NCBI GenBank assembly: GCA_030562195.1
Contig: JAUJPP010000007.1
Coordinates: 19,651,769-19,715,768 of the forward strand
Direction: 5' to 3'
From: Nipponacmea schrenckii
Taxonomy: Eukaryota; Mollusca; Gastropoda; Lottiidae
DNA length: 64,000 nucleotides
The position numbers and the translations under genes were made by a program. Within the stretch, counting starts at the first letter, position 1. The number at the start of each line of letters is the position of its first letter. Positions 10,790 through 50,521 of the stretch are shown here, piece by piece. Below the pieces are notes generated by a model. The model was not told the origin of the DNA, did not search any database, and was given only the letters and a program-made list of their open reading frames with translations.

Positions 10790-10798
10790 TAAAAAACA

Positions 10799-13700
10799 AT
10801 GTCTGTTCGGGAACCATTAACCCCGCTGTCAACCAACAATATGTCAACACCGACATCATCCAAACGACCCAATACCGGTACTGCTTCTAAATTTGTGTCT
10901 CCATCAACTAGTCGACATGCTCATATTCAAACACCTGTAGGAGTTTTTACCAAAGAACATGATGATGCAGCTGAGAAAAGAGATCGTCGAAGGTCAAGAG
11001 TTCTTGAATTACAAAGAAAAGCTGGTACAGCTGGTGGTAGTCCAATCTCTCCAGCTGACAGACGACGATCAACGCCTTTAAATGGTTTAACAGCTAATCA
11101 GTTATCTGATCATTATGCTAGTTGTATTAAACTCTCTACAGAAAATGTAAGATCAATCATTTTTTACTGGAATTGACTTTTTTTAATGTTTTTTTTTCTA
11201 GGAATCAAGACCTCAGTTTGTAGTAGTTAGATAATTTGAGATGTTAATCAATGTTGGTTTAAAAATTTGAAATTACTTAGTTGGGTAGATCTGCCTCTAG
11301 TACTTTATTGAAAAGTGAACCATTATTATGTTTTTGTGATATTTCAGAAAATAAATGCTAAAAATGCCTTTGGTCTTCATCTGATTGATTATATGTCAGA
11401 CTTATTACAGAAAAAAGGATTGGAAAACTTTCAGGTTAGTATTATTTTAGGATCTGAAAATAATTTGTGTTAAAAAGGAAGCACACTTTATACAATGGAA
11501 AAAACTTCTTTGTAGAGCTTTCTCTTTTATAAAGGTTTCTTTAAAGATGTTTATATTGCAAGTGATTTAATAACACAAAAATTTTGTATGTGTCTTTCCA
11601 GGTTGCCAGTACTACATTGGATGCTAGTGCCAAGATTTATGCTGGAAGAGTAGATTTTATTCATTCTGAAACTTATAAAGTATTAACTGGTCTGGGACGG
11701 TCAGAAAAGGACAAAAATAAAGAGGATGGTATGTGAAACTATAAACAGTTTGATTTTAAAAACAATGTACTGTAATATGTTGATAACACACAGAATTTTA
11801 TAGTAAATCAGGCATTTTACCTATATGTAATAAAATTACTGTACTATGGCATAGTAAATTTTTTTAAAAATTGCTTCTAAAATATGAATTTAATACTTCA
11901 CTCAAGCATGATATCATCAATTCATGTTTGTGATGGTTATTTTTGTAGCTGGAGAGGGAGATGAAGATATTGGTGAAGATGAAAGTAATGCAGAGGAAGT
12001 CAACAAAAAGAAGAGAAAGGTAAACCAATTGACATTTATATTCAGCAAAAGACTTCAAGTAATATACTGTATGAGTGCTAATATAGTGTACACACTTTAC
12101 TTAGCTTAGCTTTAACCATCAGTAACACTGCTCACATTATTATTAGAAACTGATAAAATGTGTTCTCCATTTATTACATTCCATCTATATTTTGTAGGTC
12201 AGAAAAAGTCGAACAGTAGAAACTAACTTAAAGAATATAAATGTCAATAAATTTGATTTAGAATTTGAGGTAAGGTTCAAAATTTACACTGCTTTTAAAA
12301 CAGGGTATAAAATATTTCCTTATTCACCTCTACAATATTTTGCATCATGGAAAAGTTTCTTATAAAAAGTGTGTAGATTAGAACGTTGGTTTTTAAAGGG
12401 GCACAGTCTTGATTTGTTTCGGACAATCATCTGACAGTCTCAAACACATAAAATCTTTTGTCTTAGCTTATCAGAAATAGTTTACAGAGCTTGCCTTTTA
12501 AATTTGAGCCTTCAAATCCATGTGTATCCATAATTATCCGTGTTTAAAAATCATAATGTCTTAAGATATTACGAACGTCCCATAATAATGGTACATCTTG
12601 ATAATCAAAGAGTTATAAATAGACTACTGCGCAGGCCCACACTGACAAAACAAAAAGAAAGTAATAACAATTGTAGACTTTGTCAACAGGACACACAATT
12701 TTCAGACTGAATGGAGACCAGCCGCGTACAGCTTGTACAGCTTGTATAGTTTGTACCTATTAAATATAGTTATTTCTTTGTTACTTTTCTCTTTGTACTT
12801 CTTGAACATGAATTTCCAATGTACTATTGTACTATTGACTATAAATATTTTCAGCCAAAACAATAAAAGTTTGAGTATATTCTACTGTATTCTATACTGT
12901 TTATGTTTCAGGTAGATCCTATGTTTCAAATCACATCAGCAGCCTTTGATGAAGGTGGAGTTAGTGGGTTGTTATTGAATAATTTACAGTGTTTTGATGA
13001 TAGTCAAGAATTAATATTAGATTCCTCTACACTGGTGTCTATTATAGATGATAGAAATTTACACCCTAGAGAATGCCAACCTGTAGATACTGGAGATCTA
13101 AAAGGTATGGTATATCAAGAAGAACACATGCATATACATGTACGTGTTTTACTTCTGTTCTAATTTGTCATATTCATATGGTTTGTAATATAAACTTTAT
13201 ATGAAGAAGCCCAATCTAGAGCAAAAACTTAAGATGTAAACCCCATTTTACATTATGTTTTGGTTGGACCTAGATATTATATGCAGAGTGATTGTAGATG
13301 TGTTTATCGAAGGTAGAAAATCTCCAATACCAACTACCAAAGTTTCTAAGTCCTCTTTTTTCTTGGCTTAATCTAATTTTATTATTGTTTTCAGAGTTAT
13401 TTTCTAAGTTGCATATGGAAGAAAAAAGAATATGTCCTGCATTTGAAGACTTCAGATTTACAGAATGGGATGGCTCTGATACTGTGAGTATTGTTTTCAT
13501 GCTTCTTTGAATATTATACCAGAATATTTGGTTATCTCTATTGATACCAGCTTGTAATAAAACTATTAACCCAAGAAATCCATCATTGCATTGATCAAAA
13601 TGAACTCAAAGTTCTAATAAAGTAAAAAATAATGCCACATGCGTTACACTTTTGTGTTTCTCACTTGAATTATTTCTTGTTTCCATGCCTTGGATAAACT

Positions 13701-22592: not shown

Positions 22593-25500
22593 TTAATTAT
22601 ATACTGGCATGAAGTTATCGTTACTGGTTGTATTTCCATTACTGTTTGTACCATTAGCAGTTGCTGGGAATTCAAATGACGTATCTGATGAATTGGGACT
22701 TTTATTCTGAACTTTGTGTTGTAATTTACGTAGCAGTTCCGATGCTGGCGTACTTAACGCAAACCCTGATGGAAAGAAATTGAGTTCAGGTTTTAAATCA
22801 GGATTGGTGTTAATATAAGGTTGATACCATGGTAACCCAGTAGATGAAGCATCTTTACCTGGACTGAAATTTAATGATGCTTTATTTGAATCAGATTTCT
22901 TGGGTGTCTTTGAAGGGCTTGGTCCTTCTTCAGAATTAGAAGTTGTAGAATTTATTTTTGATTCTTTAGCTGGCTGCTGTTCTCTCAATTTCTTCTGACG
23001 TAATAAATGCCTCTCTTTGACCTTGTACTCAAGAGTGGAATGAGGCACTCCATAATAACTGCCAGCTCTGTGAACACTCATTTCTCCACGTTGAACAGCT
23101 TTAACAGCCTCCATTAGAAGAGCACTGTTGTACTTCCTGTATTGGCCTCGCTTTGGTCTGGTCTTCTTCAAAGCATTCGCATTAGGTGGAATTACCTCTT
23201 CTTTCTTATCTTTTCTGGTTCGTTTAGCAGGACTGTGGTTATTGGAATATTTTGAGCTAGGTATTGTCATTTGAGAAGAAATTTTATTATTGAAATGTGA
23301 TCGTAAAGGACTAGACACATCAGCTTCAGAACTACTGTCTGAACCATCACGAAATCTCATCTTTTCTGTGATGGTCTTCATAATAATATCTTTTAATGTT
23401 TCTCCAATTCTTCCCTCTTCATAAACTTTACCATATAATTTACTCTTCTCTGACAAATGATTATTATTATTATTGTTATTATGTGTAGGACTGGCACCTT
23501 TATAGGACGGAATTCGGATATCTTTTTCATCAGCGCTAACCAATGATGACAAATAGGCTGCAGTTAAGGGTGAGGTGTAAGGATTGCCCAGGGCAAAACT
23601 TGTGGCGTTATCAGTATCTTTATTCTTTTTTGAGGCACTTTTTTGGCACTCCATTTCAAATCGTTGTTCCACCAATTTATGAATTAAATCTGCCAATAAG
23701 GGGAGTTTGAGTTCATTGACGTGTGCAGGTTTTGTGGCAACGTCAAATGTACCATCAATATTGTGTTTCTGGCGAACAATTTCAATTCTTCTCTGCATTT
23801 CTTCAGGTGAAATATCTTCTTTTTGAAATGGGAGAACAAAAGGTAACGGCGGTAAAAAGGCAAAACTTCCTGCCTGCATCAGATCTGTTAATTTCATATT
23901 TTTCTCTAGCTCCTCAATTGAATTAGAATCTTCAGCATTTTGATCATCAATTTCCATTTTAAATATTTTATTTCTGAGAGTGGATCTTGGGATGCCGTAC
24001 AGAGTAGAGGCTCTTCTTGTACCTAGTTTACCACTGCGTATATCTCCAACAGCAGAAACTAAATCGTCATCCGAATAAGCTCTCTTACCATTGGTCAACA
24101 AGTCTTTCTTTGTTTTCCTGCAATAATAATTTTTGTTCTTTTTCAAATAAAAGTTTTACAATATCAAACTTTTCAATTTCATTTCTTTCCATTCAACTAA
24201 ACTAATTTTTATACAAGAGTCTATTGAGGCCTGTACTTCAAGGAGATTTGACACAATGTGTTTGACGATCAAATCAGCTATCCTAGGGTTGAGTTTTTCA
24301 GAGTAGTAGACGTGTTCTTCATCGATAATAAAACGTAGTAACTTACCCTGGCGGAATAGGGAGTTGTGGAACCTTGAGTTGAATTAGAGATTTATTATTA
24401 TTATTAGAACTATCTTCTATATCCTCTTCACTGCCTTCTTTCTTAGCATGCTGTGTATAATACTGGGTACAGAATGGTAGCAAGTCTTGTAGGTATCTGA
24501 GATCTACAATAAAAATAACAAATTTAGTTGGCCAATGTTTATATGATTTACTGATACTGCTACAATTTAGAGAGAATGAGTATCTTCAATTACAAATCCA
24601 TAAATGGTTTCTTAAATTAACAAGTAGCTGAAGTCTACAAAAATATATTCTATGTATCATAATGGCACCTATTCTGTACTGACAGCTCTGTTGCCAGATT
24701 GTATTTATATATTGCTAGAATTTGGAGTCTCTATCTTTGATTCAATAATCAATATATTTTCTCCTCATTCACCATATAAATTCAGGACCAGTATCTTCCA
24801 GATGTTATGATCTGTATCTAATATAATTCAATTAAGACAGTCTGAATCAAATCATTGAAAAATTGTTTATACTTACTAGCATTATCTGGATCAATTCTAC
24901 CCTTCTTAGCATCATCTGTTAGTTTGGTTACTATATCCTTCAAATACAATTATTGGAATTATTACAATAGAATTCACATAACATAGAAAATATAGTTGTG
25001 TTATAGATAGAATCTTCAAAACCTGCTTCTGTCATGAAATTCACAAAATTCATTAAGATAGCTTTTCAGGCAAGGTAACATACACCCACATAGTTTAATC
25101 ATTTTTTGCCTTTGATTCATCATTCCAATGCTCACACCAAGTTTCAAATTTACTAAGCGCATCTTGCTAACCATTCATAGAAAAAAGCGTCAGTTTTGAA
25201 CTTGCCCATCATCTTATCAATTTCAATGCTCACATCAAAATCAATTGAGAATTGTACTCACAACAAATATACAAACAGGAGCAATAACTCAAAAACTGTT
25301 CATCAAAAAATTGTTGAATTAGTACTTGACTGCCATATTATCAATTCCAATACTCACACCAAGTTTCATAAAAATCCAATGAAAATTGTAACTTCTATTA
25401 TACCCACCACAAATGTTAATGGATCGACAGACTGACAATGGCAATATATATCCACATATTCATGTTGTCAAATAAAAAGCATTTTCAAGATTTTCTATTT

Positions 25501-29277: not shown

Positions 29278-30166
29278 ATTTGACCGTGCTTTGCTGTAAA
29301 CGTCACGACAACATGTGCTCAATATTCATGACGTTTTCTGTACAGGTGTGATCAGTGTAGATTGACAGTTATTCCAATTAATAAACAGGTGGTAATTAAT
29401 CCTTTATCCTATTATGATTACCTTTGTCTGGATTGAAATTCTTATGACTGGGGAATATCTGATAATATTAGCATACTTATTGTGCAACAAAGTTATATTT
29501 AGTGTCACAATTATGTAAGTGAATATGACAGTTATTCCTGAATATGACAGTTAGGGGGGAAAATTTGTTTATTTTGAAATCATAAATGAAAAATATTTGT
29601 TAAGTGAACGGAGAACATAACTAGGTCTGTAACAGCAACTATTATTTTAAATGCTAGCGAAATATGTTTCAGTTTAAATTAAAATTAGATGGTTTGTAAA
29701 TTATCCTTTAGTACAAGATTTTCCCTACAAAATAATACAAAAAAATATAATTGTGGTAGGGCCTACTATATTTATTTCCAGTTCAAGTTTTGGATAACAG
29801 TATTTATTAATCACAATACATCATAATCTTTCCTTACTTTAAGTTTCATGTCTTCAAAAAAGACAGTTTTATTCAATGTATCCACAACTTCAAAACAACA
29901 AAAGCATATTTATTTCACTATTCTTATGAAGGCTCAAATTCACATAAAACACAAAGAATACCTATCTGAACAAGTAAACAAGTAAAACAATTCCAGCAAA
30001 AAAGCAAAATTTGGGAGCAATACATGTATATGTACTAGTATAGTCATTGATTCCGCATACAAGAAAAACTATCAGGTGTATACTTAATGCAAGCCACATC
30101 AATTCATACTTGACTAAACAGATCATGTGAGAAGATAGCGGAGCAATAAATTATTTGAACAATTAA
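29278..30166. promoter_or_regulatory. Head-to-head spacer, LCOR-like gene / MORN4
   Basis: Presumed shared promoter region for the two divergent genes. Close to the LCOR-like start lie two inverted CRE-like half sites, ACGTCA at 29300-29305 and TGACGT at 29329-29334. The rest is AT-rich and I see no further element or exon, although MORN4 must have a non-coding first exon or a start within this interval or the repeat that follows. Confidence 0.35.
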
Positions 30167-30171
30167 TGTAT

Positions 30172-30366
30172 TGTCTAGTCATAATAATGAGTACAGGGAT
30201 ATATAATTTGATGTATTTTCTAGACATAATAATGAGTACAGGGATATATAATTTGATGTATTTTCTAGACATAATAATGAATACAGGGATATATGATTTG
30301 ATGTATTTTCTAGTCATAATAATGAATACAGGGATATATGATTTGATGTATTTTCTAGGCATAATA
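30172..30366 (+). repeat. 45-bp tandem repeat duplicating the MORN4 splice acceptor and start codon
   Basis: Four copies (periods start at about 30191, 30236, 30281, 30326) of a 45-base unit made of ATAATGAGTACAGGGATATA, AATTTGATG and TATTTTCTAG. The next, fifth occurrence is the real MORN4 exon start (TTTTCTAG acceptor, ATG at 30367, then MSTGVYN). Each unit repeats both the polypyrimidine/AG acceptor and the ATG context. The unit is 15 codons long with no stop, so every upstream ATG is in frame with MORN4. Confidence 0.85.
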
Positions 30367-30729
30367 ATGAGTACAGGGGTATATAACTACCCTGATGGTA
30401 GCACATATAGTGGGGAATGGAATCCACAAAATCAAAGACATGGGTATGGCCATATGAAATTTACAGATGGATCACAATATTGGGGTTATTTTGAAAATGG
30501 CTTGTGTTCAGGTTATGGATTAATGAAGTTTAAGGATGGATCCAGGTAAACAATTCTTTAATTCCTATTCTTTGATAGAGCGACAATAGAATAAATATCC
30601 ATGAAAGAGCACATGCCTAGGTCAGAAGCTATAACTATACATTTCCATGTGCTGTTAATGGTATTATGGTTAATTGTAAACTGACCTGTGTTTACTATAA
30701 TTTGGACTGGGGCATCATTATTATTCAAG

Positions 30730-35853: not shown

Positions 35854-38800
35854 TCATGGTAAAATTAAGGTACTTGTGGACGTCAAAGTTGGGGTGATAG
35901 GAGAAGTATGGGGAGAACTCTTCTTGTTTGATTTTGTTAATGAATATGAGGAAGGAATGTTTGATTTATCACAAGAAATATTTTGAAATAAACTGTCTAT
36001 TATATTAAATACAGCTTGACCAATCTGCTCTGGTGATACAGATTTCCTATCTAGTAGATTCCAATCTGACTGACTAACACCATGTGGAACCTGAAAACAT
36101 GCAGTTAGTTAAACATAAAATTGAAAAACTAGTTATTTGAAATGGATATTCCCAAATTGAACATATATTATGAAAATCTATAAACTTTCAAATTCTAAAC
36201 AAATCAAAAGGTGATATTAAAATATGAATACACAACCCAGATAATGGATATCCAGTTTTTTCAATAGTTGAAACATGTTCTTAGTCATTAGAGAACATAT
36301 TTATTCAAAAGGTTACACGGTAAAATCTGAATTTCTTATTCTTTAGTTTTTTTTTTTACCACCTCTTTAATACCGTTAATCTCTTAATTAACGAAATTAA
36401 TTGACCGGTATTGTTAGGAGTCTCATTGACTTAACATGATTGTTTCGTAATTTAATTTTTAATAATTTTTTTTTTAAACGTCACTGACCTATAGGCCCTA
36501 TTTGATGTCCGGCGGAGCCTATTTGCAAACGGTCATTTTCGTGTGACTGCAGGTCATGTCCGGCATATAGAGTCAAATCAACAGCCCTGATGTGAATTCC
36601 TTAATGGCACAACAATATGTGACAATTTCTAAAAATTGTTGTACCCTTGAGTAATTAGTGCTCCTGAATGCAGGGTCTGAATTGCTGAATTGTAACATTC
36701 AAGGTTCAAAGGGTTAACTTAGATTGGTCCAAAAAAAAATTAATTCTGAAAGAGGTTCAGAACTTCAATAAACTCTTAAAAAATAACTTACATGAAATAT
36801 TTTGTCTGGTACTCCAAATTTACCAGCAGCAGCTCCTCCTGTACAAGCTACAGGTATAACAATACGATCATTCCATACAAACTCTTCAGCTTCATGGGCT
36901 GCTCCTGGTCCTCCTGCAAAATTTTATTACTATATGTGTTATCAATCTAGGCAAGGAAAGAACATTTGATGATAAATTTATACTTGACTAATTGGGGCCA
37001 TAAATTACTTTTGTCAAACAAATAAATGTACCATGAACTGGCTTTTGAGAAGAACATATGACCAATATTATAATTCTTCTGCTACAATATTTATATATTT
37101 CTGATTCCCCACCTTTGATTAAGAATATACTTACCTTCGATCAAAATACAGACATCAAAACACTTCGCCACAATAGTTTCTCTTTCCCGAACACTGTCAC
37201 CACAAAATAAACTTTCACCAAATGGTACCTTTTCAAACTTGCCATCACTACCTTGTATAGCTTGTTCACTTCTGTCCTAATAACAGAATGAGATATTATC
37301 AAATAGTATTAGCTAATATGCATTTGTATAGCATTTCAATTTCTTCAGTTTATGATAGATTCTATGATTCTTTGGAAAACAAAACTTTTTTCAAATTTTC
37401 CATCAAACACTCAATCTACACACAAAAAATTACCATAACTTAGCAATTTAGTCAACAAAAGTATGAACTTTAGACCAACATAATATAAAATATATTAGGC
37501 TTCCCAAATATATGAAATAACAGCAGTGGATATTTTAAAAAGTAAGTAATATATCAGTCTACCTGTGTGTCCCTCTCTGGTAAAATATGCCACACTCTAT
37601 TCTTTCTATTTAGTTTTTGATTTTTCTCAAAGAAAGCCTTACTCAGTGTTTCTCCAACACCATGGAAACCCCCAGTTACCAGTCTTATATCTTCTCTTCT
37701 AGCCAGTCTTGTTCCTATTGCTCTATTATATTATGTATATTAACAATTGTTTAAAAACATTTTCAAAATTATAAAATACTTTACAACCATCATTTATTTG
37801 AGGTAAAAGTAATTGAATTCTTGCAAAGATTAAAGCAACATTTTAAGAGTAAACCTATCTAATAAATGTTTGAGTCTTAAAAATATATCCAGTGCATCAT
37901 GTGTTTTTGTCAGTTAACAGATCTTTACAAATACTTGGAAGTTGTGCAAGTTTATTCTCCTAATAAACTAATAAATACTACTCAAAAAAACAAACAAAAA
38001 ACGAAGTCTTCATACCTACAGATACTCTCTGTTGTATCATTATAAAATTTGGTACTACCCGAAATATACACACAATATGGGTTGTTGATGGACTTCTTTA
38101 TATAATTTACCTATCAAAAAAATCATGTTTATCAAAATTTTGGGCTATCACCCACAGCAAATATTTTGACAATTTAAATTTTTATTCGCCTGTAATTTGA
38201 ATAATTTGTTCAGATTATAGTAAGGATGAATATTGATATTATGTATTTCTACTACTGTTTTTTAAAAGGAAACTGAACTAAGAAGCACTACTACTGTTTT
38301 ATAAACATGTAAATACATTAGGCTTAACCAATGCTTCTGAGAGTCGTTCTGCTATCAGCTTTTAACTTTATAACTTATACAGTAACTATATATCATTAAA
38401 GCCTAGTTTATCTTCAAGTATATATAGAGTTACACTACTACCTACCATAGTGTTTATTTTGGCATCATTTATCTCTATCTGTAAATTATCCTTGTTTCCT
38501 GATTGTAAACATCGATTGATCTGAGACAGTAAAAACTCCTTATAGCCATCTTGATTTATATTCTGAAAAATTTGAAATACTGATACATGTAATGAGTCTC
38601 ATTTTTCTGTTCCTGATAAAATTGTTCTGTTAAATGAATTTCCGGTGATTAAAACAGGTCAATCCAATAAATGTATTTCCATTCAAAAACTAGAGTTGTG
38701 TCCCTTCCTATTTGGAAACCACAAGTGTCACCACAAAAAAAAACCATAATAGACAGGCTAGAATGGAAGATTAATAGTAGCACTATACAATAATGTTTCT

Positions 38801-41800
38801 GATTCATTGTATCAAGAAATGATTATTATGCAAAGCATGTCCATAGCATCAACAAAAAATGAACTTAAAAATAGAAGTTTTGAGTAGTTCAACAAAGAGG
38901 CTATAAAGAACTCACGTGAAAATGATATATATATGTACTTACATGGAAGGGAGTTGAACCAATTAACATACTTAACCAGCCTGGTATACGAACATCTTGA
39001 TATTGTAATGGTATAACAGGTTTCCTTTGTTCACAGTAAAATACCTATAACATTATCAACTTTGATTACTTGACTGGACTGAATACAGTACTCAGTATAA
39101 TGTTGTTATTTTTTTTGATTACTGTATATTGACAATGCATATTCAGACAGCTGGGTTGTGCTATAAAACTTCAAATTGCACGAAAACTTCAAAATTTTTT
39201 TGTCTATCAACACTCTTTCATTATTTTAATACTATTTGATGAAAACTTTCATTGAACTTCAAAAAATTGCTATTGTTCAAATTGACTGGTGTTTGTGTTG
39301 GATATATCAAAGGATGTTCCAAAATGGATGGGGAATAAATAAGAAGAGACAATTCACCTGTTGTTGACAAGTTTTAGAAGTAGTAAAATCTTTCGACAGA
39401 ATAATTAATACTAGATCAGCTTGATCAGCTTTCTCTTGGAAATATTTAATATAATCATTATCTATTGGTAATACACCATTTTCACCATCTGTTGTATCAT
39501 TACTACATTCTGTAAATAAAAACAGTCTCTAAGTCTAAGCAATAGATGTGATATATGTATTTGTAAGTTCATATCTGATTAGAGCTACAGAGAGAAACCA
39601 GTAACCAATTAGCAAGAATTTGTTAAGATGCAAATATATTTGAAAAAAAGTTAAAAATATAAAAGTGTTAAATTGTCCATCTGTCCATAGTGGTTTTATT
39701 ATCACTTACATCAAATGAATAAGAATTTATTACAAAGAGTATCTTATTTGGTTTTAAGCCAAAAAATCAACCAATTCTTAATTTTCACCCACGTAACCTA
39801 CTAGGTACTCGTTAACAGATTGAGGTCATTGTTTAAAATTTGCTTAAAAGGTATTAAAGATATTTAAGCACTTGAAAAACTGTTCCTGTTACACTAATGG
39901 AATAATTTGTCTTATTAAACACATTTAAACACTTTCCCAAACCATACCTATTAAACTATCTTGACTTGGTGGTAGCGTATCAGAGTCTACAATATCAGGA
40001 TCTCTTTCATTAGAACACCATACTTGAAATCCATGATTCATCAACCAATTCTTAATATCATTGCTCTACAAAATATAGTGTTATTTATTAAACTTGAACA
40101 TTATAGTCATGATCATTGTAAAATCACTATAATTGTTTTAATGATTTGAAATTAAATCATTATGGGGGAATAAACACTGTGTTATCATGTCATTAGACAA
40201 ATGACCTTGTGAAGAGTGAAAGTGTTTCTCACACAAGATCATTCCTTAAATATTAGGCAAATAGATTTCCTTAAATAGAATAAGATGCAAACATCATTAT
40301 ATCCGTTAGAAGAACAAAAACTTTAAAATATGTAAAAACATGAGAAATTCATCATAACTTCTGCCTTAAAAAAAAATAGTAAGGTTTAGATTTTATGTTT
40401 ACACTAAGAAACTTACAAATGTTTTTTGAGCAGGATGGACACAGAGAACAATATTACGTGCATCATTGTTTTCGCTGTCATAGGAAACTTGAGCTAGAAC
40501 TTCAGTTGGTAGTTTACCAGCAAATGTCTTCATTAATGTTTTCTGTTGAGAGAACAGTTCAATTAAGTTAGTTGTGAATCATTTCTAATATACAAAAAAA
40601 TTTCAACTTTGAGTAAAAGGATAGCCATTAATCATTGCTTAAATATATAATGATAGTGTATTTTTGCTATTCTGGATTCTATGTTTTTGTTTTTATCAGT
40701 TCTTGCATTCATTGAAAATCTCCTTTACAAATCGGCTCAAGCTTATAAATTTCATTGAGGAATCAAAACATATGTCTATGAGATAAGATAAGTTCTTGTT
40801 GAATACAAACAAGGACAAAATATTCTACAGCGTTAAACAAGGATCACTTAAGCCATAATAGATAGAATTAAATAGAATTTAATGAATGCTTACCCTTCTA
40901 GTTAAAGATGGTATTCTTTCTAATTCCATACCGACTAGTTGTTCTAGTCTATTAGCTATAGATTTGGCTACATGAGCTATATATTCCTTATTCCAGTAAC
41001 CAATATCATTAGCTCTTTCTTCTCCATATGTAATCTTATCTGAAACAAATAAAATGTATACCATCAAATATCTGTATTATATTATTCTTTGCTTTAAATT
41101 CAAATTAATGAGTTTGTGATGTTAATCATTAGTTATCCTTTTATTATATTCAAAATACTTTAAAAATTGGGTAACAGATGGGATGAAAAGTTTCCCATTT
41201 CTTATCTAAATGACAGTAATTCACAATAAATTTCATTTTTCCTCACACGTATAGAAGCTTACCATGTTCTAGCTGCTCCACTGTCTTCCATGCTACATAT
41301 TGAGTTGTAGCAAACTGTATAGCTAAACATCTTGGTGGCCATGTATCCAGAAAATTAATAGGGAGAATGTATTTCCCTAAAACATCAGCTAATTTCACCT
41401 ACAATAGATATTAGAAGTAAAAAATAAGAACTTGAATATCAGAACATAGTATTTCGGCATTGCTTTACAATTAATACATTGAACAATATTTTAAATAGGC
41501 AAATAGATCTGTTTGACACATTTAATATATATGTCATAAGAAATGACAAGCACTCTGTAATAGCATCAAACTGAATGTTGTCAAAGATCAAGTTTATGCG
41601 ATACAATCCTCATAAGACACCCAAAATTGTGCAAATTACGCACTTTCAGAGCCTATAAAATTACTCTTAAACTATCAAAAAATGTCAAGATAACTTCAAT
41701 TTAAACGAGATATAAACTGTAGTCTTGATTGTGCTCAAATGAAATGTTAATACAAATACAAAAAATATATAAATATGACTTATTAAATTGAAATAAATGC

Positions 41801-44800
41801 CTACCTCTCTATTGGTCCACTGTGTTTCACCATAACGTGGTGTTATTAATGGTAAAAATATCTGACAATTACTAACAGCATAGTTTAATGAATCCTGCCA
41901 ATCAACACCCGATTTTATTTCATGGACGTCCTGAAAAGATATCAGATATAATATCAATCAAAAATCTAGTTTCATGAATATGGATGAGATTTTAAATGCA
42001 CTAACACCTGCTCTGCCTTTAATTAAGGGAATTCTTATGTTCAGTTGTTTTACACTGATGAAGTTTATCCTGGCAATAGACAACTGACATCATCTATTCT
42101 ATGTTCTACTAATTTTAAAACAAATATACATTTAATTAAATTCTTCCAATAAAACTTACCAAATAAACACTGAATCCAAGGGAAGACAACTGTTGTTTTA
42201 AATTCAGAGCATGTTGAGCAGCCTCTGCTCTTACATAACTTATCAGTAACTGTTTAGATGGTATAGAAACACTCTCTACACTAGAACATATGGACTTGTA
42301 CGTATCATCTTTACTCGTACAAAATGTCAGCTCTTTCATTCTAAACAAAATGAAAGTTGGTGGATTTAAAAAAAAAATTTATTATTTTATTTGCTCTTAT
42401 GCGGAAAATAAGAAATACTATACAGTGTGAATGAACAAAAACCTGCACTAAAGCAACAGAAGAACCTATCAGATTTTATGTTTTTCTACAACTAACTAGG
42501 CTTTCTATCTATGGTCTCCTGTTCAGACAAAATTATGCATAACACAACATCAAAGAAACGAAAGCATGTAACTGTCTTCATAATCCATATCTGACTCAGG
42601 CTTTTATCAGGTATAGGAAACAGTCAACAATATAAAATATACAAAACTCCTTTAACCTTACCTTTTAATCTTTTTTCTAGGAGGTGTATTTGATAATAAA
42701 GAATTATCATTATAATCAGTGGTAGACAGGTGGTTGTCGAGGTATATTATTTCAGGTGACAGGGTAATACATGACTCATTCACTACCTCTAAAACAGTCA
42801 TTCTGTCTTCTTGGTTCTTTCTTACCGGCCAACCATTATTATCAATAAATATAAACCTATCTGACAAATCAATCTACAATAACAGTCAGATATTTAATTC
42901 ACTTCATCTTGATCTACTAGTGCAAACTATTAAATATCAAACCAGAAATGATCAGACTAGCTTCTATAAATTTCTTTAAAAGGACTCTGAGTTTGACTTA
43001 ACCTGCAGTTGTTAAAGAAGAAATTGATTTGAAAAGTTCAAATCTACAATTTAAATGGTAATCTAGTTGCTGAAATCCAGCCTAGCTAGCAAACTAAATA
43101 CAATCTCAATAGTAAATTATACCTCATTGTATATCAAAGTGCGCAGTTGTGACAGTCTGCTGTTGTAGTTAATAAAAATAGATCCCAAGGCCAGCCCTGA
43201 ATTCAACTTCACTCCAATCTTTGGTTTATCTGAAAGAAAATGATGATATATCATTCAATTATTCCTGAAATTTCTCAATGCAGTTTATCTACTATTGTAT
43301 CCTTTAGCCTTCATGTCATATAGGCTAAGGAAGGTCAAATTCATCTATGAAAAATATATATTTGCACCTTTAAAGCCGATAGTGATCAATTAAAGCTGGT
43401 AAGTAGCGGTTTTTTTTTCTGAAATAACATTTAATGCAAAGTTCTCTAAACCAAACTGAAAGTAACAACAGTCTCAATTGTATAATTCTCTTATCACATT
43501 AATAATATATAGGCCTAGAATATTATATGGTATACGAAGAATATAATTATAACATCTCCACTTACCAAATTTGTGTTTAATGAATAAAGTTTTATCTTTT
43601 GATAAAATCACATTCAATTTAAACTGAGATTCTTGACTCTCAGAAATAGGCCACCTGGAAAAATTAGAAATATGATAAATTACCTTTTTCCTTGATCTCA
43701 TTGAGGGAAAAATAAACAGTCTGAGAAAATTAGAAGAATTATGCGTTGACTATGATAAAATGACGGATAGGCCCAAAGAATAGAAAAATACCACATTATG
43801 AGATAAAATAAAAGGAGGGGGTAATATATACATCATAGTGTTTCTATTTATCTCATGTTCTGCCTACTGGTGAATTCCAACCACAGATGAATTTAAATAT
43901 ATACTTTATTATATAAATAGGTCAAGAATATAAGTATAAATAAGTTACAATGGAAAACTAGAAACAAAATATAACTTCCCTATATGAGGCTGTTAATTAC
44001 GGATGATCATAATAATTTATCATCTGATGAGATCTTTCTCAAGGAATTTAGAAAGTGAGAAGGATATTAAATGATTTTAATATCCTTCAAGGCTGTGCAT
44101 TATAATTTTAATTCTTATTACATTTGGTTGCACACAACCTTACATTTTTTTGCTATTCTTACCTTTGTTTTGTACAGAAACTATAACAAGCAGGAAGACT
44201 TGGCAGTTGTTTTAATAATTCATTCCGTAGTTGATCTAAGGTGTATTTCTTTTCTTTAGGTAACGGTAATACCACCAAACCTAACTTTGTGACTGATTCG
44301 CCACATTCTGATAATAAATTCACCCCTATCAACCATGGTTCATCTTCATCTAAAATACAACAAAATATCAAATTATCTATGAATCTCCCAAAGATCTAAT
44401 AAGAATAGAAAATCAAAAAAAAATAAATTTCTGTACCTTGGAATGGCAGGATTTGTCTATCAATCTCTGCTTGTCTGACTCAACCCCTCTACCCAAGCGC
44501 AGCTGTCAAAGTTGTCTTGGTTGGCCTATGGCCTGTCACTGTCAGTAGGCCTAGCCAAAAAATAACCTTTGCAATTAACAACACAAGTCAATCATATAGG
44601 CTATCATTCAGAACAATTATGAATACTGACATTGCTGATTAGAGATTAGTACACCAAGCAAAGCATGACAAAAGTCAGAGATTAGAGAAAGTACAATATG
44701 AATTACATAGGCCTATTTGAGTGACAAGTGTAATTTCATAGAACTTAAGTTAATGGTCATTCCTTTTTCAGTGTAGAATAACTGGAGTACAGAAACCTTC

Positions 44801-44886
44801 TTTTAGGAAACAGATTAAAGGCATGACTATAAATAATAGCATGAAATATAAAATAAAATTTCATTTTTCCCACCTTCGTCAGCCAT
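35854..44886 (-). CDS. TIR-TIR-SLOG protein with duplicated N-terminal domain
   Basis: I know no named ortholog. Nineteen exons (minus): 44874-44886, 44163-44349, 43566-43654, 43123-43229, 42662-42873, 42160-42340, 41805-41930, 41263-41398, 40894-41039, 40417-40542, 39948-40065, 39358-39509, 38943-39044, 38446-38562, 38016-38110, 37563-37722, 37135-37276, 36792-36913 and 35854-36090; all phases close, 855 residues. Residues 28-85 and 105-160 are two copies of one domain (LxQLR, then WP(I/V)xxxQE). A basic PPRKKIKR (about 196-203) could be a nuclear signal. TIR1 (about 232-395) starts QLLISYVRAEAA and has QWTNREV with Glu305 where SARM1 has its catalytic Glu. TIR2 (about 428-600) has CQQQVF, with Gln530 there. 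SLOG (about 612-790) has YISGST, VTGGFHGVGET and EGGPGAAHEAEE, a GGxGxxxE motif as in LOG/DprA folds. TIRs often cleave NAD+; SLOG domains bind nucleotides or ADP-ribose derivatives. A signalling or immune role is inference. Confidence 0.85.

Positions 44887-45564: not shown

Positions 45565-50521
<4,957 letters not shown>

What the first reader, a model, noticed from the sequence alone, without database searches (positions are those of the whole stretch)
35854..44886. Animal protein that joins TIR domains to a SLOG domain, Thoeris-like in layout
The rebuilt 855-residue protein carries a NAD-cleaving-type TIR, a second TIR and a SLOG/LOG-like Rossmann domain. In bacterial Thoeris defence the TIR protein ThsB makes a cyclic ADP-ribose isomer that is sensed by the SLOG domain of ThsA. 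Animal SLOG domains are known mainly from TRPM channels. A one-chain enzyme plus sensor in an animal nuclear gene would be a self-contained NAD-derived signalling module. Seen directly: the domains, motifs and all 19 splice phases. Inferred: the signalling link and any immune role. I do not know whether this architecture has been reported.
Basis: partly seen in the sequence, partly recalled or inferred. Interest (0 to 1): 0.92.

Follow-up and report, generated by a model that had tools for sequence, protein, structure and literature searches.

The report
Animal TIR–SLOG NAD-signalling protein
One animal gene, likely from a limpet, encodes a single protein that joins a TIR domain with the NAD-cleaving glutamate, a second TIR without it, and a SLOG domain related to the one bacteria use in Thoeris antiviral signalling; the same uncharacterised protein occurs from sponges to sea stars and is predicted to link NAD breakdown to nucleotide sensing.

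Summary
The minus-strand gene at 44886-35854 splices into 19 exons with 18 GT-AG introns and gives exactly 855 residues. It is an ancient animal gene: relatives with the same layout occur in molluscs, annelids, nemerteans, a priapulid, chelicerates, echinoderms, hemichordates, Trichoplax and sponges. No listed name says more than 'TIR domain/motif-containing'.

TIR1 keeps the catalytic glutamate in 118 of 119 sequences. TIR2 has glutamine there in 117 of 121 and weakly resembles MyD88/TLR TIRs. The C-terminal domain is a SLOG: of 14 members scanned, 14 match Pfam LDcluster4 and 12 STALD; profile-profile E against nine ThsA-type SLOGs is 1.6e-11. A viral-contig scan with it confirmed one locus, a phage Thoeris operon. 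TIR1's best NCBIfam match is a Thoeris type III TIR, below that model's cut-off.

It is not a Thoeris system: no SIR2, no operon, and one of three ThsA ligand residues is missing. I favour a SLOG-gated NADase, a counterpart of SARM1. I saw no paper describing the architecture, but two likely ones could not be read.

The parts
35854..44886 (-). whole gene, start codon to stop codon, 19 coding exons
   Evidence: 18 GT-AG introns, 855 aa
44874..44886 (-). exon 1 (MADE-)
44163..44349 (-). exon 2
43566..43654 (-). exon 3
43123..43229 (-). exon 4
42662..42873 (-). exon 5
42160..42340 (-). exon 6
41805..41930 (-). exon 7
41263..41398 (-). exon 8
40894..41039 (-). exon 9
40417..40542 (-). exon 10
39948..40065 (-). 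exon 11
39358..39509 (-). exon 12
38943..39044 (-). exon 13
38446..38562 (-). exon 14
38016..38110 (-). exon 15
37563..37722 (-). exon 16
37135..37276 (-). exon 17
36792..36913 (-). exon 18
35854..36090 (-). exon 19 with stop codon
42736..44341 (-). residues 8-178 (exons 2-5): two repeats of about 80 aa sharing a (N)GWPI/VxxxQE-like motif, ubiquitin-like by eye only
   Evidence: repeat 1 vs repeat 2 hhalign probability 99.1, E 9.5e-19; no Pfam family above its cut-off and no PDB match; coordinates
41279..42267 (-). residues 228-345 (exons 6-8): TIR1, NADase type
   Evidence: 52 of 118 columns at least 95% conserved; coordinates
41805..41807 (-). codon of E305, catalytic glutamate of TIR1 (last codon of exon 7)
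   Evidence: aligned with the glutamate of SARM1 WVHKE; 118 of 119 sequences; coordinates
38488..40464 (-). residues 426-590 (exons 10-14): TIR2, degenerate, weakly MyD88/TLR-like
   Evidence: (TIR_2 in 9 of 9 members scanned); coordinates
39358..39360 (-). codon of Q531, TIR2 position equivalent to E305 (last codon of exon 12)
   Evidence: Q in 117 of 121; coordinates
35956..38457 (-). residues 601-822 (exons 14-19): SLOG domain
   Evidence: coordinates
37181..37183 (-). codon of R721, taken as equivalent of ThsA R371 and LOG R99
   Evidence: R in 111 of 121
36891..36893 (-). codon of E744, taken as equivalent of ThsA E403 and LOG E122
   Evidence: E in 105 of 121

Best explanation
This is a conserved animal protein in which a SLOG domain likely senses an NAD-derived or other adenine nucleotide and is predicted to switch an attached NAD-cleaving-type TIR domain (TIR1) on or off. 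Shown: the domains, the retained TIR1 glutamate, the glutamine in its place in TIR2, the retained SLOG arginine and glutamate, and the conservation across animals. Inferred: TIR1 is an active NADase or cyclase; SLOG binds ADP-ribose, a cyclic ADP-ribose isomer or a related nucleotide; TIR2 and the N-terminal repeats hold or assemble the complex, TIR2 perhaps with MyD88/Toll-type TIRs. In this reading it is a SLOG-gated counterpart of SARM1 built from parts like those of Thoeris, with TIR1 itself as the output because the chain has no SIR2 or other recognised effector domain.
For: TIR1 is the most conserved part of the protein (52 of 118 columns at least 95% identical, against 14 of 200 for SLOG 601-800, 14 of 165 for TIR2 and 3 of 171 for the N-terminal repeats) and E305 is kept in 118 of 119. 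Its best solved relative is SARM1 (E 5e-8 with an 8-sequence profile) and its best curated defence models are Thoeris TIRs. SLOG passes the Pfam STALD and LDcluster4 cut-offs and, of 14 members chosen, 11 match a PADLOC ThsA model. SLOG aligns over 183 of 222 columns with nine ThsA-type SLOGs (E 1.6e-11), while the other three segments do not (probability 8% or less). Of the three residues reported to coordinate 3'cADPR in ThsA (R371, K388, E403; passages of PMC10022894) two have counterparts (R721, E744). TIR2's eight best PDB hits are TLR/MyD88 TIRs, all weak.
Against: No structure model could be made and nothing is known about activity, ligand or expression after challenge. K388 of ThsA falls on P739, lysine in only 1 of 121 animal sequences. 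E744 is replaced (L in 11, I in 2, G in 1; two gaps) in oysters, mussels, scallops, octopus, one Tachypleus copy and Priapulus while E305 stays, so at least there TIR1 does not need an intact SLOG pocket. The SLOG profile found TRPM2 (E 0.0018 for the whole chain, 0.076 for its best stretch) but no ThsA chain in the PDB at E up to 10. LDcluster4 outscores STALD, and NCBIfam lists TIGR00725, not ThsA, for SLOG.
Confidence: 0.5

Rival explanations
1. SLOG is an enzyme, not a sensor: TIR1 cleaves NAD+ and SLOG then cuts the adenine-ribose bond of the product, LOG-like, to finish or end the signal.
For: The two proposed LOG catalytic residues (R99 and E122, 23 apart; passages of PMC4979012) match R721 and E744, also 23 apart; both are present in 98 of 121 sequences. 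The loop EGGPGAAHE resembles PGGxGTxxE. LOG 5ajt is among the weak PDB hits of the SLOG profile (E 0.16). Viral SLOGs were proposed to act both as sensors and on such linkages (PMC9503650, passage).
Against: The threonine of the LOG motif (phosphate contact) is alanine here and in 84 of 121 family members, threonine in 3. R721 and E744 are also the ligand residues of the ThsA sensor, so they do not tell the two apart. E744 is lost in whole bivalve groups.
Confidence: 0.2
2. A TIR scaffold or adaptor without enzyme activity, like many animal TIR proteins; SLOG and TIR1 are kept for structure.
For: TIR2 lacks the glutamate and its best, weak PDB hits are TLR/MyD88 TIRs. Invertebrate ecTIR-DC proteins have been guessed to be adaptors or regulators (passages of PMC6321704).
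Against: E305 is kept in 118 of 119 sequences, in the most conserved domain, whereas TIR2 shows that the family can do without the residue. TIR1's best PDB hits are SARM1 and bacterial TIRs, AbTIR among them; plant TIRs and SIGIRR come lower.
Confidence: 0.15
3. A true Thoeris-like relay in animals: TIR1 makes a diffusible cyclic ADP-ribose isomer that is sensed by SLOG of the same or another molecule as an immune alarm.
For: Profile matches of both halves to Thoeris components; the single viral locus confirmed with the animal SLOG is a phage Thoeris operon.
Against: No SIR2 or other recognised effector; K388 missing; TIR1 gives no ThsB_TIR hit and no hhalign match to TIR proteins beside ThsA; no infection data.
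Confidence: 0.15

Closest known systems
Thoeris type I (ThsB TIR + ThsA SIR2-SLOG)
   Same: A TIR paired with a STALD-type SLOG; counterparts of R371 and E403; TIR1 matches a PADLOC ThsB model and SLOG PADLOC ThsA models
   Different: One chain in an intron-rich animal gene; no SIR2; no K388; TIR1 is TIR_2 type with no ThsB_TIR (PF08937) hit; extra degenerate TIR and N-terminal repeats
Thoeris type III TIR protein ThcB4 (NCBIfam NF058526)
   Same: Best curated NCBIfam match of TIR1 (E 3.2e-18; also best for P0002, P0047 and P0087)
   Different: 65.7 bits against a membership cut-off of 220; only the TIR segment matches
SARM1
   Same: Animal NADase TIR, catalytic glutamate aligned; gating by a nucleotide-binding domain (recalled) is the model proposed here
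   Different: SARM1 uses ARM and SAM domains (recalled); here SLOG, a second TIR and N-terminal repeats
TRPM2 N-terminal SLOG-like region
   Same: Best PDB hit of the SLOG profile (E 0.0018): GGPG loop and an arginine before it
   Different: Ion channel; threonine where E744 is (GGPGTLHT)
LONELY GUY phosphoribohydrolases
   Same: Arginine and glutamate at the same spacing of 23
   Different: Motif threonine replaced by alanine; weak sequence match (E 0.16)
ecTIR-DC proteins (Gerdol et al. 2017), TIR survey group 18 (PMC7075850) and TIR atlas clades 10-13 (PMC13142454)
   Same: Invertebrate TIR proteins outside the standard model animals; the atlas calls its all-eukaryotic clades uncharacterised (section 5 read); group 18 holds mollusc and echinoderm TIRs with diverse architectures (passages)
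   Different: Gerdol 2017 was seen only in reference lists, so whether this family is one of theirs is unknown; neither the atlas nor the survey text holds the word SLOG

Membership tests
TIR domain, NAD-cleaving type (TIR1) | TIR fold by profile | tested here: met
   TIR_2 E 3.3e-23 (82.9 bits for the whole protein, cut-off 28), best stretch 236-343
TIR domain, NAD-cleaving type (TIR1) | catalytic glutamate | tested here: met
   E305 aligned with SARM1 WVHKE; 118 of 119
TIR domain, NAD-cleaving type (TIR1) | NAD+ cleavage | not testable with these tools
   no assay
TIR domain, NAD-cleaving type (TIR2) | catalytic glutamate | tested here: not met
   Q531; Q in 117 of 121, E in 2, L in 1, H in 1
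SLOG superfamily | profile match over the domain | tested here: met
   LDcluster4 at E<=0.1 in 14 of 14 members scanned; 183 of 222 columns aligned with ThsA-type SLOGs
SLOG superfamily | Rossmann-like fold in a structure model | not testable with these tools
   job failed, then tool switched off
STALD (ThsA-type SLOG) | curated Pfam cut-off | tested here: met
   26.4 bits for the protein, cut-off 24; E<=0.1 in 12 of 14 members, but LDcluster4 scores higher
STALD (ThsA-type SLOG) | 3'cADPR-coordinating R371, K388, E403 | tested here: not met
   R and E have counterparts, K388 does not
Thoeris defence system | SIR2-SLOG (or other) effector gene | tested here: not met
   no SIR2 or TM-macro effector among the families listed for the 855 aa
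Thoeris defence system | separate thsA and thsB genes in one bacterial operon | tested here: not met
   one 19-exon gene
LOG phosphoribohydrolase | catalytic Arg and Glu | tested here: met
   R721 and E744, spacing 23 as R99 and E122
LOG phosphoribohydrolase | PGGxGTxxE motif | tested here: not met
   EGGPGAAHE in the window; alanine for threonine in 84 of 121

The most novel reading that the evidence does not exclude
Animals since the time of sponges carry a one-molecule descendant of Thoeris-type signalling: TIR1 turns NAD+ into a cyclic ADP-ribose-type messenger, SLOG reads it in the same complex, and the MyD88-like TIR2 hands the alarm to Toll-type signalling. Vertebrates, flies and roundworms lost it, which is why it went unnoticed.
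Probability: 0.25. Interest if true: 0.95.

Novelty: new variant of a known kind. Interest (0 to 1): 0.8.

Why it matters
TIR-to-SLOG nucleotide signalling is known from bacterial antiviral defence. Here the same two domain types sit in one conserved animal protein present in sponges, Trichoplax, echinoderms, hemichordates and protostomes, with the catalytic glutamate almost invariant. If it works, animals have a second nucleotide-gated TIR NADase besides SARM1 and a possible direct link between bacterial-style NAD signalling and Toll/MyD88-type TIRs. It is testable at once in sea urchins, oysters or Trichoplax, and the bivalves and octopus that lost the SLOG glutamate are natural mutants.

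Tried and rejected
Thoeris system proper: rejected, no SIR2 and no operon. Gene split: not supported, because probable transcripts and gene models from many animals keep the whole chain. A short Batillaria model (P0121, 393 aa, TIR2-SLOG part only) looks like a partial public model. Recent bacterial transfer: not supported. Short patterns from the whole-family alignment and from its SLOG gave no confirmed relative in the 84,980-species prokaryote collection (17 and 99 pattern matches, none confirmed); the family tree follows animal phyla in the main, but it was rooted arbitrarily on three sponge sequences and puts the annelid Dimorphilus beside a priapulid and arthropods, with low support at several deep nodes. 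TIR1 as a ThsB_TIR relative: hhalign against eight single TIR proteins beside ThsA genes gave probabilities below 1%; three more TIR genes cut at locus ends were left out, and the test is weak, since TIR1 against TIR2 gave only 66%. Standalone SLOG relatives: the SLOG alone as query found two proteins, one from the snail Batillaria and one unnamed. Plasmids gave no match to the animal SLOG at E up to 10 and phages only a 39-bit match with E 0.1, in two records of one phage. TIR-SLOG single chains on plasmids: of 93 records matching the ThsA SLOG 40 were listed; 34 were annotated SIR2 family (7 of these with a TIR gene under the same match), 4 hypothetical and 2 without a feature. None was seen; that does not exclude them elsewhere, and the Pfam name STALD itself says 'TIR-associating'.

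No title or abstract start in the listings of 9, 11, 17, 18, 27, 76 and 78, and no passage that I opened, describes this architecture in animals; one search showed only 20 of 1,669 papers, and (six gene names) found no paper. Burroughs et al. 2015 (DOI from memory) is not held, and Gerdol et al. 2017 was seen only in reference lists; these are the likeliest places. I did not read supplements. The Rfam scan of the window at gathering scores was empty. A scan of viral contigs for a member of the unnamed clade found nothing. My notebook says 35 sequences for that clade; the tree has 34.


Full report
What is there. On the minus strand, 44886 to 35854, the sequence holds a 19-exon gene. Every one of 18 introns is GT-AG, the frame is continuous, and the product is 855 aa. 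A Lottia gigantea protein is 87% identical over the full length (P0001), so the window is likely from a related limpet; I infer this from that match alone, since the genome search did not complete. The L. gigantea model carries 29 extra residues where exon 18 meets exon 19; none of the other 119 homologs has more than 10 residues there, so the window model is the better one at that place.

The family. The protein search found 215 hits, of which the best 120 are listed. Named sources include gastropods, a chiton, bivalves, an octopus, nemerteans, annelids, a priapulid, spiders, a scorpion, ticks, a mite, a horseshoe crab, a sea spider, sea stars, sea urchins, a brittle star, crinoids, hemichordates, Trichoplax and the sponges Corticium and Oscarella. 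No vertebrate, insect, nematode, cnidarian or prokaryote is named among those 120, nor among all 117 hits of a second search with a distant member. Many rows carry no name, 95 hits were not shown, and both searches scored only the roughly 8000 candidates sharing most words, so this is not proof of absence. A tree follows the animal phyla in the main, with exceptions and an arbitrary root. The names given are 'uncharacterized', 'hypothetical', 'unnamed', a CDS number or 'TIR domain/motif-containing', except one metagenome record called 'predicted Rossmann-fold nucleotide-binding protein' (P0136). Short contigs of the source labelled lgn and a EukProt transcript hold the whole protein in one frame, which speaks for a single mRNA.

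TIR1 (228-345). Pfam TIR_2 E 3.3e-23. The best PDB relative is SARM1, with the glutamate of WTNRE (E305) on that of WVHKE. E305 is present in 118 of 119 sequences that have a residue there; the exception is Littorina (K), and two sequences have a gap. TIR1 is by far the most conserved segment. Among defence models, PADLOC gives ThsB (PDLC00434, E 1.4e-13) and NCBIfam gives Thoeris type III ThcB4 (E 3.2e-18, 65.7 bits against a cut-off of 220). Against this, Pfam listed no ThsB_TIR hit at E up to 10, and hhalign of TIR1 with eight of eleven TIR proteins that sit beside ThsA genes was negative (three cut at locus ends were left out). That hhalign test is weak: single target sequences, a shallow TIR1 profile, and only 66% for TIR1 against TIR2. 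I take TIR1 to be a TIR_2-type domain and not a ThsB_TIR.

TIR2 (426-590). TIR_2 matches 9 of 9 members scanned. The position of E305 is Q531, glutamine in 117 of 121. The eight best PDB hits are TLR and MyD88 TIRs, all weak (E 0.0033 for the best, then 0.072 to 0.11). I read it as a scaffold TIR of the Toll/MyD88 kind that lost or never had activity.

SLOG (601-822). LDcluster4 and STALD both pass Pfam's cut-offs. Of 14 members, chosen from 121 sequences, 14 match LDcluster4 and 12 match STALD at E up to 0.1, and 11 match a PADLOC ThsA model. I scanned the viral contig collection (2.9 million) with the animal SLOG profile: of 59 pattern matches one was confirmed, 34% identical over residues 153-210 of the query. 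That locus, L001, encodes ThsB (PF08937, E 5.3e-26) followed by ThsA with SIR2 and STALD (E 1.2e-52), a phage-borne Thoeris operon. A profile of 120 animal SLOGs against nine SLOGs of ThsA type (two from viral contigs, seven from plasmids; the Ligilactobacillus one is a hypothetical protein without SIR2) gives probability 97.4 and E 1.6e-11 over 183 of 222 columns. The other animal segments against the same profile give at most 8%.

The pocket. In ThsA, R371, K388 and E403 coordinate 3'cADPR (passages of PMC10022894), and S288 and F357 are further STALD residues (passages of PMC7272460). In the hhalign alignment, R721, P739 and E744 pair with R373, K390 and E407 of the phage ThsA. I take these as the counterparts of 371, 388 and 403 by the spacing 17 from R to K; the second spacing is 17 against 15, and I had no B. 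cereus sequence to check. The plain MAFFT alignment places this stretch differently, so the assignment rests on hhalign. R721 is R in 111 of 121 and K in 7; E744 is E in 105 of 121; both together in 98 of 121. Position 739 is P in 94 of 121 and K in 1; S621, opposite a ThsA serine, is S in 63 of 121. The LOG catalytic pair R99/E122 (passages of PMC4979012) has the same spacing of 23 as R721/E744, so a LOG-like hydrolase cannot be excluded. Against a ThsA-like reading: the PDB search with the SLOG profile listed TRPM2 (E 0.0018) and a LOG (E 0.16) but no ThsA, and NCBIfam gave TIGR00725 as its best SLOG hit (E 9.7e-6).

A natural experiment. E744 is leucine in 11 sequences, all in the oyster, mussel and scallop branches, isoleucine in the octopus and one Tachypleus copy, and glycine in Priapulus; all keep E305. 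Either SLOG gating was lost there or SLOG is not essential for TIR1. This weighs against my model and is the first thing to test.

N-terminus (8-178). Two repeats detect each other (probability 99.1) but no Pfam family passes its cut-off and no PDB chain matches. The pattern reminds me of a ubiquitin-like fold; that is by eye only.

Mechanism. Committed reading, confidence 0.5: SLOG is a nucleotide switch for the NADase TIR1, with TIR2 and the N-terminal repeats as assembly parts. Shown are the domains and residues; enzyme activity, ligand, gating and immunity are inferred. Rivals are a LOG-like second enzyme (0.2), a plain scaffold (0.15) and a true Thoeris-like messenger relay (0.15).

Novelty. 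TIR-SLOG signalling is described for prokaryotes (passages of PMC7824862 and PMC9503650), and Pfam domains are already precomputed for these animal proteins in the database searched, TIR_2 and in part LDcluster4. In the listings and passages seen I found no description of an animal TIR-TIR-SLOG protein. The TIR atlas preprint (PMC13142454: outline, section 5 and passages) reports uncharacterised eukaryotic TIR clades without the word SLOG, a TIR survey (PMC7075850, passages) likewise, and Gerdol 2017 could not be read. I file it as a new variant of a known kind.

Noticed in passing
window 41805-41807 and 39358-39360: Both TIRs are cut by a phase-0 intron exactly after the catalytic position (WTNRE| and CQQQ|), a shared intron site that hints at a common origin of the two TIRs inside animals.
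   Followed up: no
34 of the 120 proteins (list) and many more: An unnamed clade (labels ena, lgn, jgi, some ncbi) has full-length members read as one open frame; pairs list contigs of identical length (193008, 156873, 248218, 300724 bases), suggesting neighbouring copies in an intron-poor host. Host unknown; perhaps demosponges.
   Followed up: partly
SLOG position 744 in P0065, P0069, P0071, P0076, P0077, P0079, P0081, P0082, P0084, P0090, P0095, P0110: SLOG glutamate replaced (L, or I in the octopus) in the oyster, mussel and scallop branches and octopus while the TIR1 glutamate stays.
   Followed up: partly
P0025, P0034 (land snails Candidula, Bradybaena): TIR2 has E at the Q531 position and SLOG has K at R721 in these two; five other sequences of the same gastropod branch show the K with Q531 kept.
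   Followed up: no
P0007 (Littorina saxatilis): The only sequence with another residue (K) at the TIR1 glutamate in the alignment; not checked for alignment or model error.
   Followed up: no
L001 1203-3207: A 14.8-kb IMG/VR contig carries a complete-looking ThsB plus ThsA (SIR2-STALD) pair.
   Followed up: partly
P0001 (Lottia gigantea model): 29-residue insert between the residues of exons 18 and 19, not seen in the other homologs listed: likely a retained intron in the public gene model.
   Followed up: partly
window 22596-24155 (-): Open frame with HTH_psq domains in two stretches (Pfam E 7.7e-27).
   Followed up: no
window 10793-13160 (+): Probable exons of a condensin subunit 2 gene (Cnd2, E 1e-12 for the piece at 12867-13160; 0.0091, below the cut-off, for 10793-11173).
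   Followed up: no
window 30139-30546 (+): MORN-repeat exon (E 6.5e-8).
   Followed up: no
window 46617-48263 (+): 549-residue open frame, lysine- and serine-rich by eye, no Pfam match at E up to 0.01; a divergently oriented neighbour of the TIR-SLOG gene.
   Followed up: no
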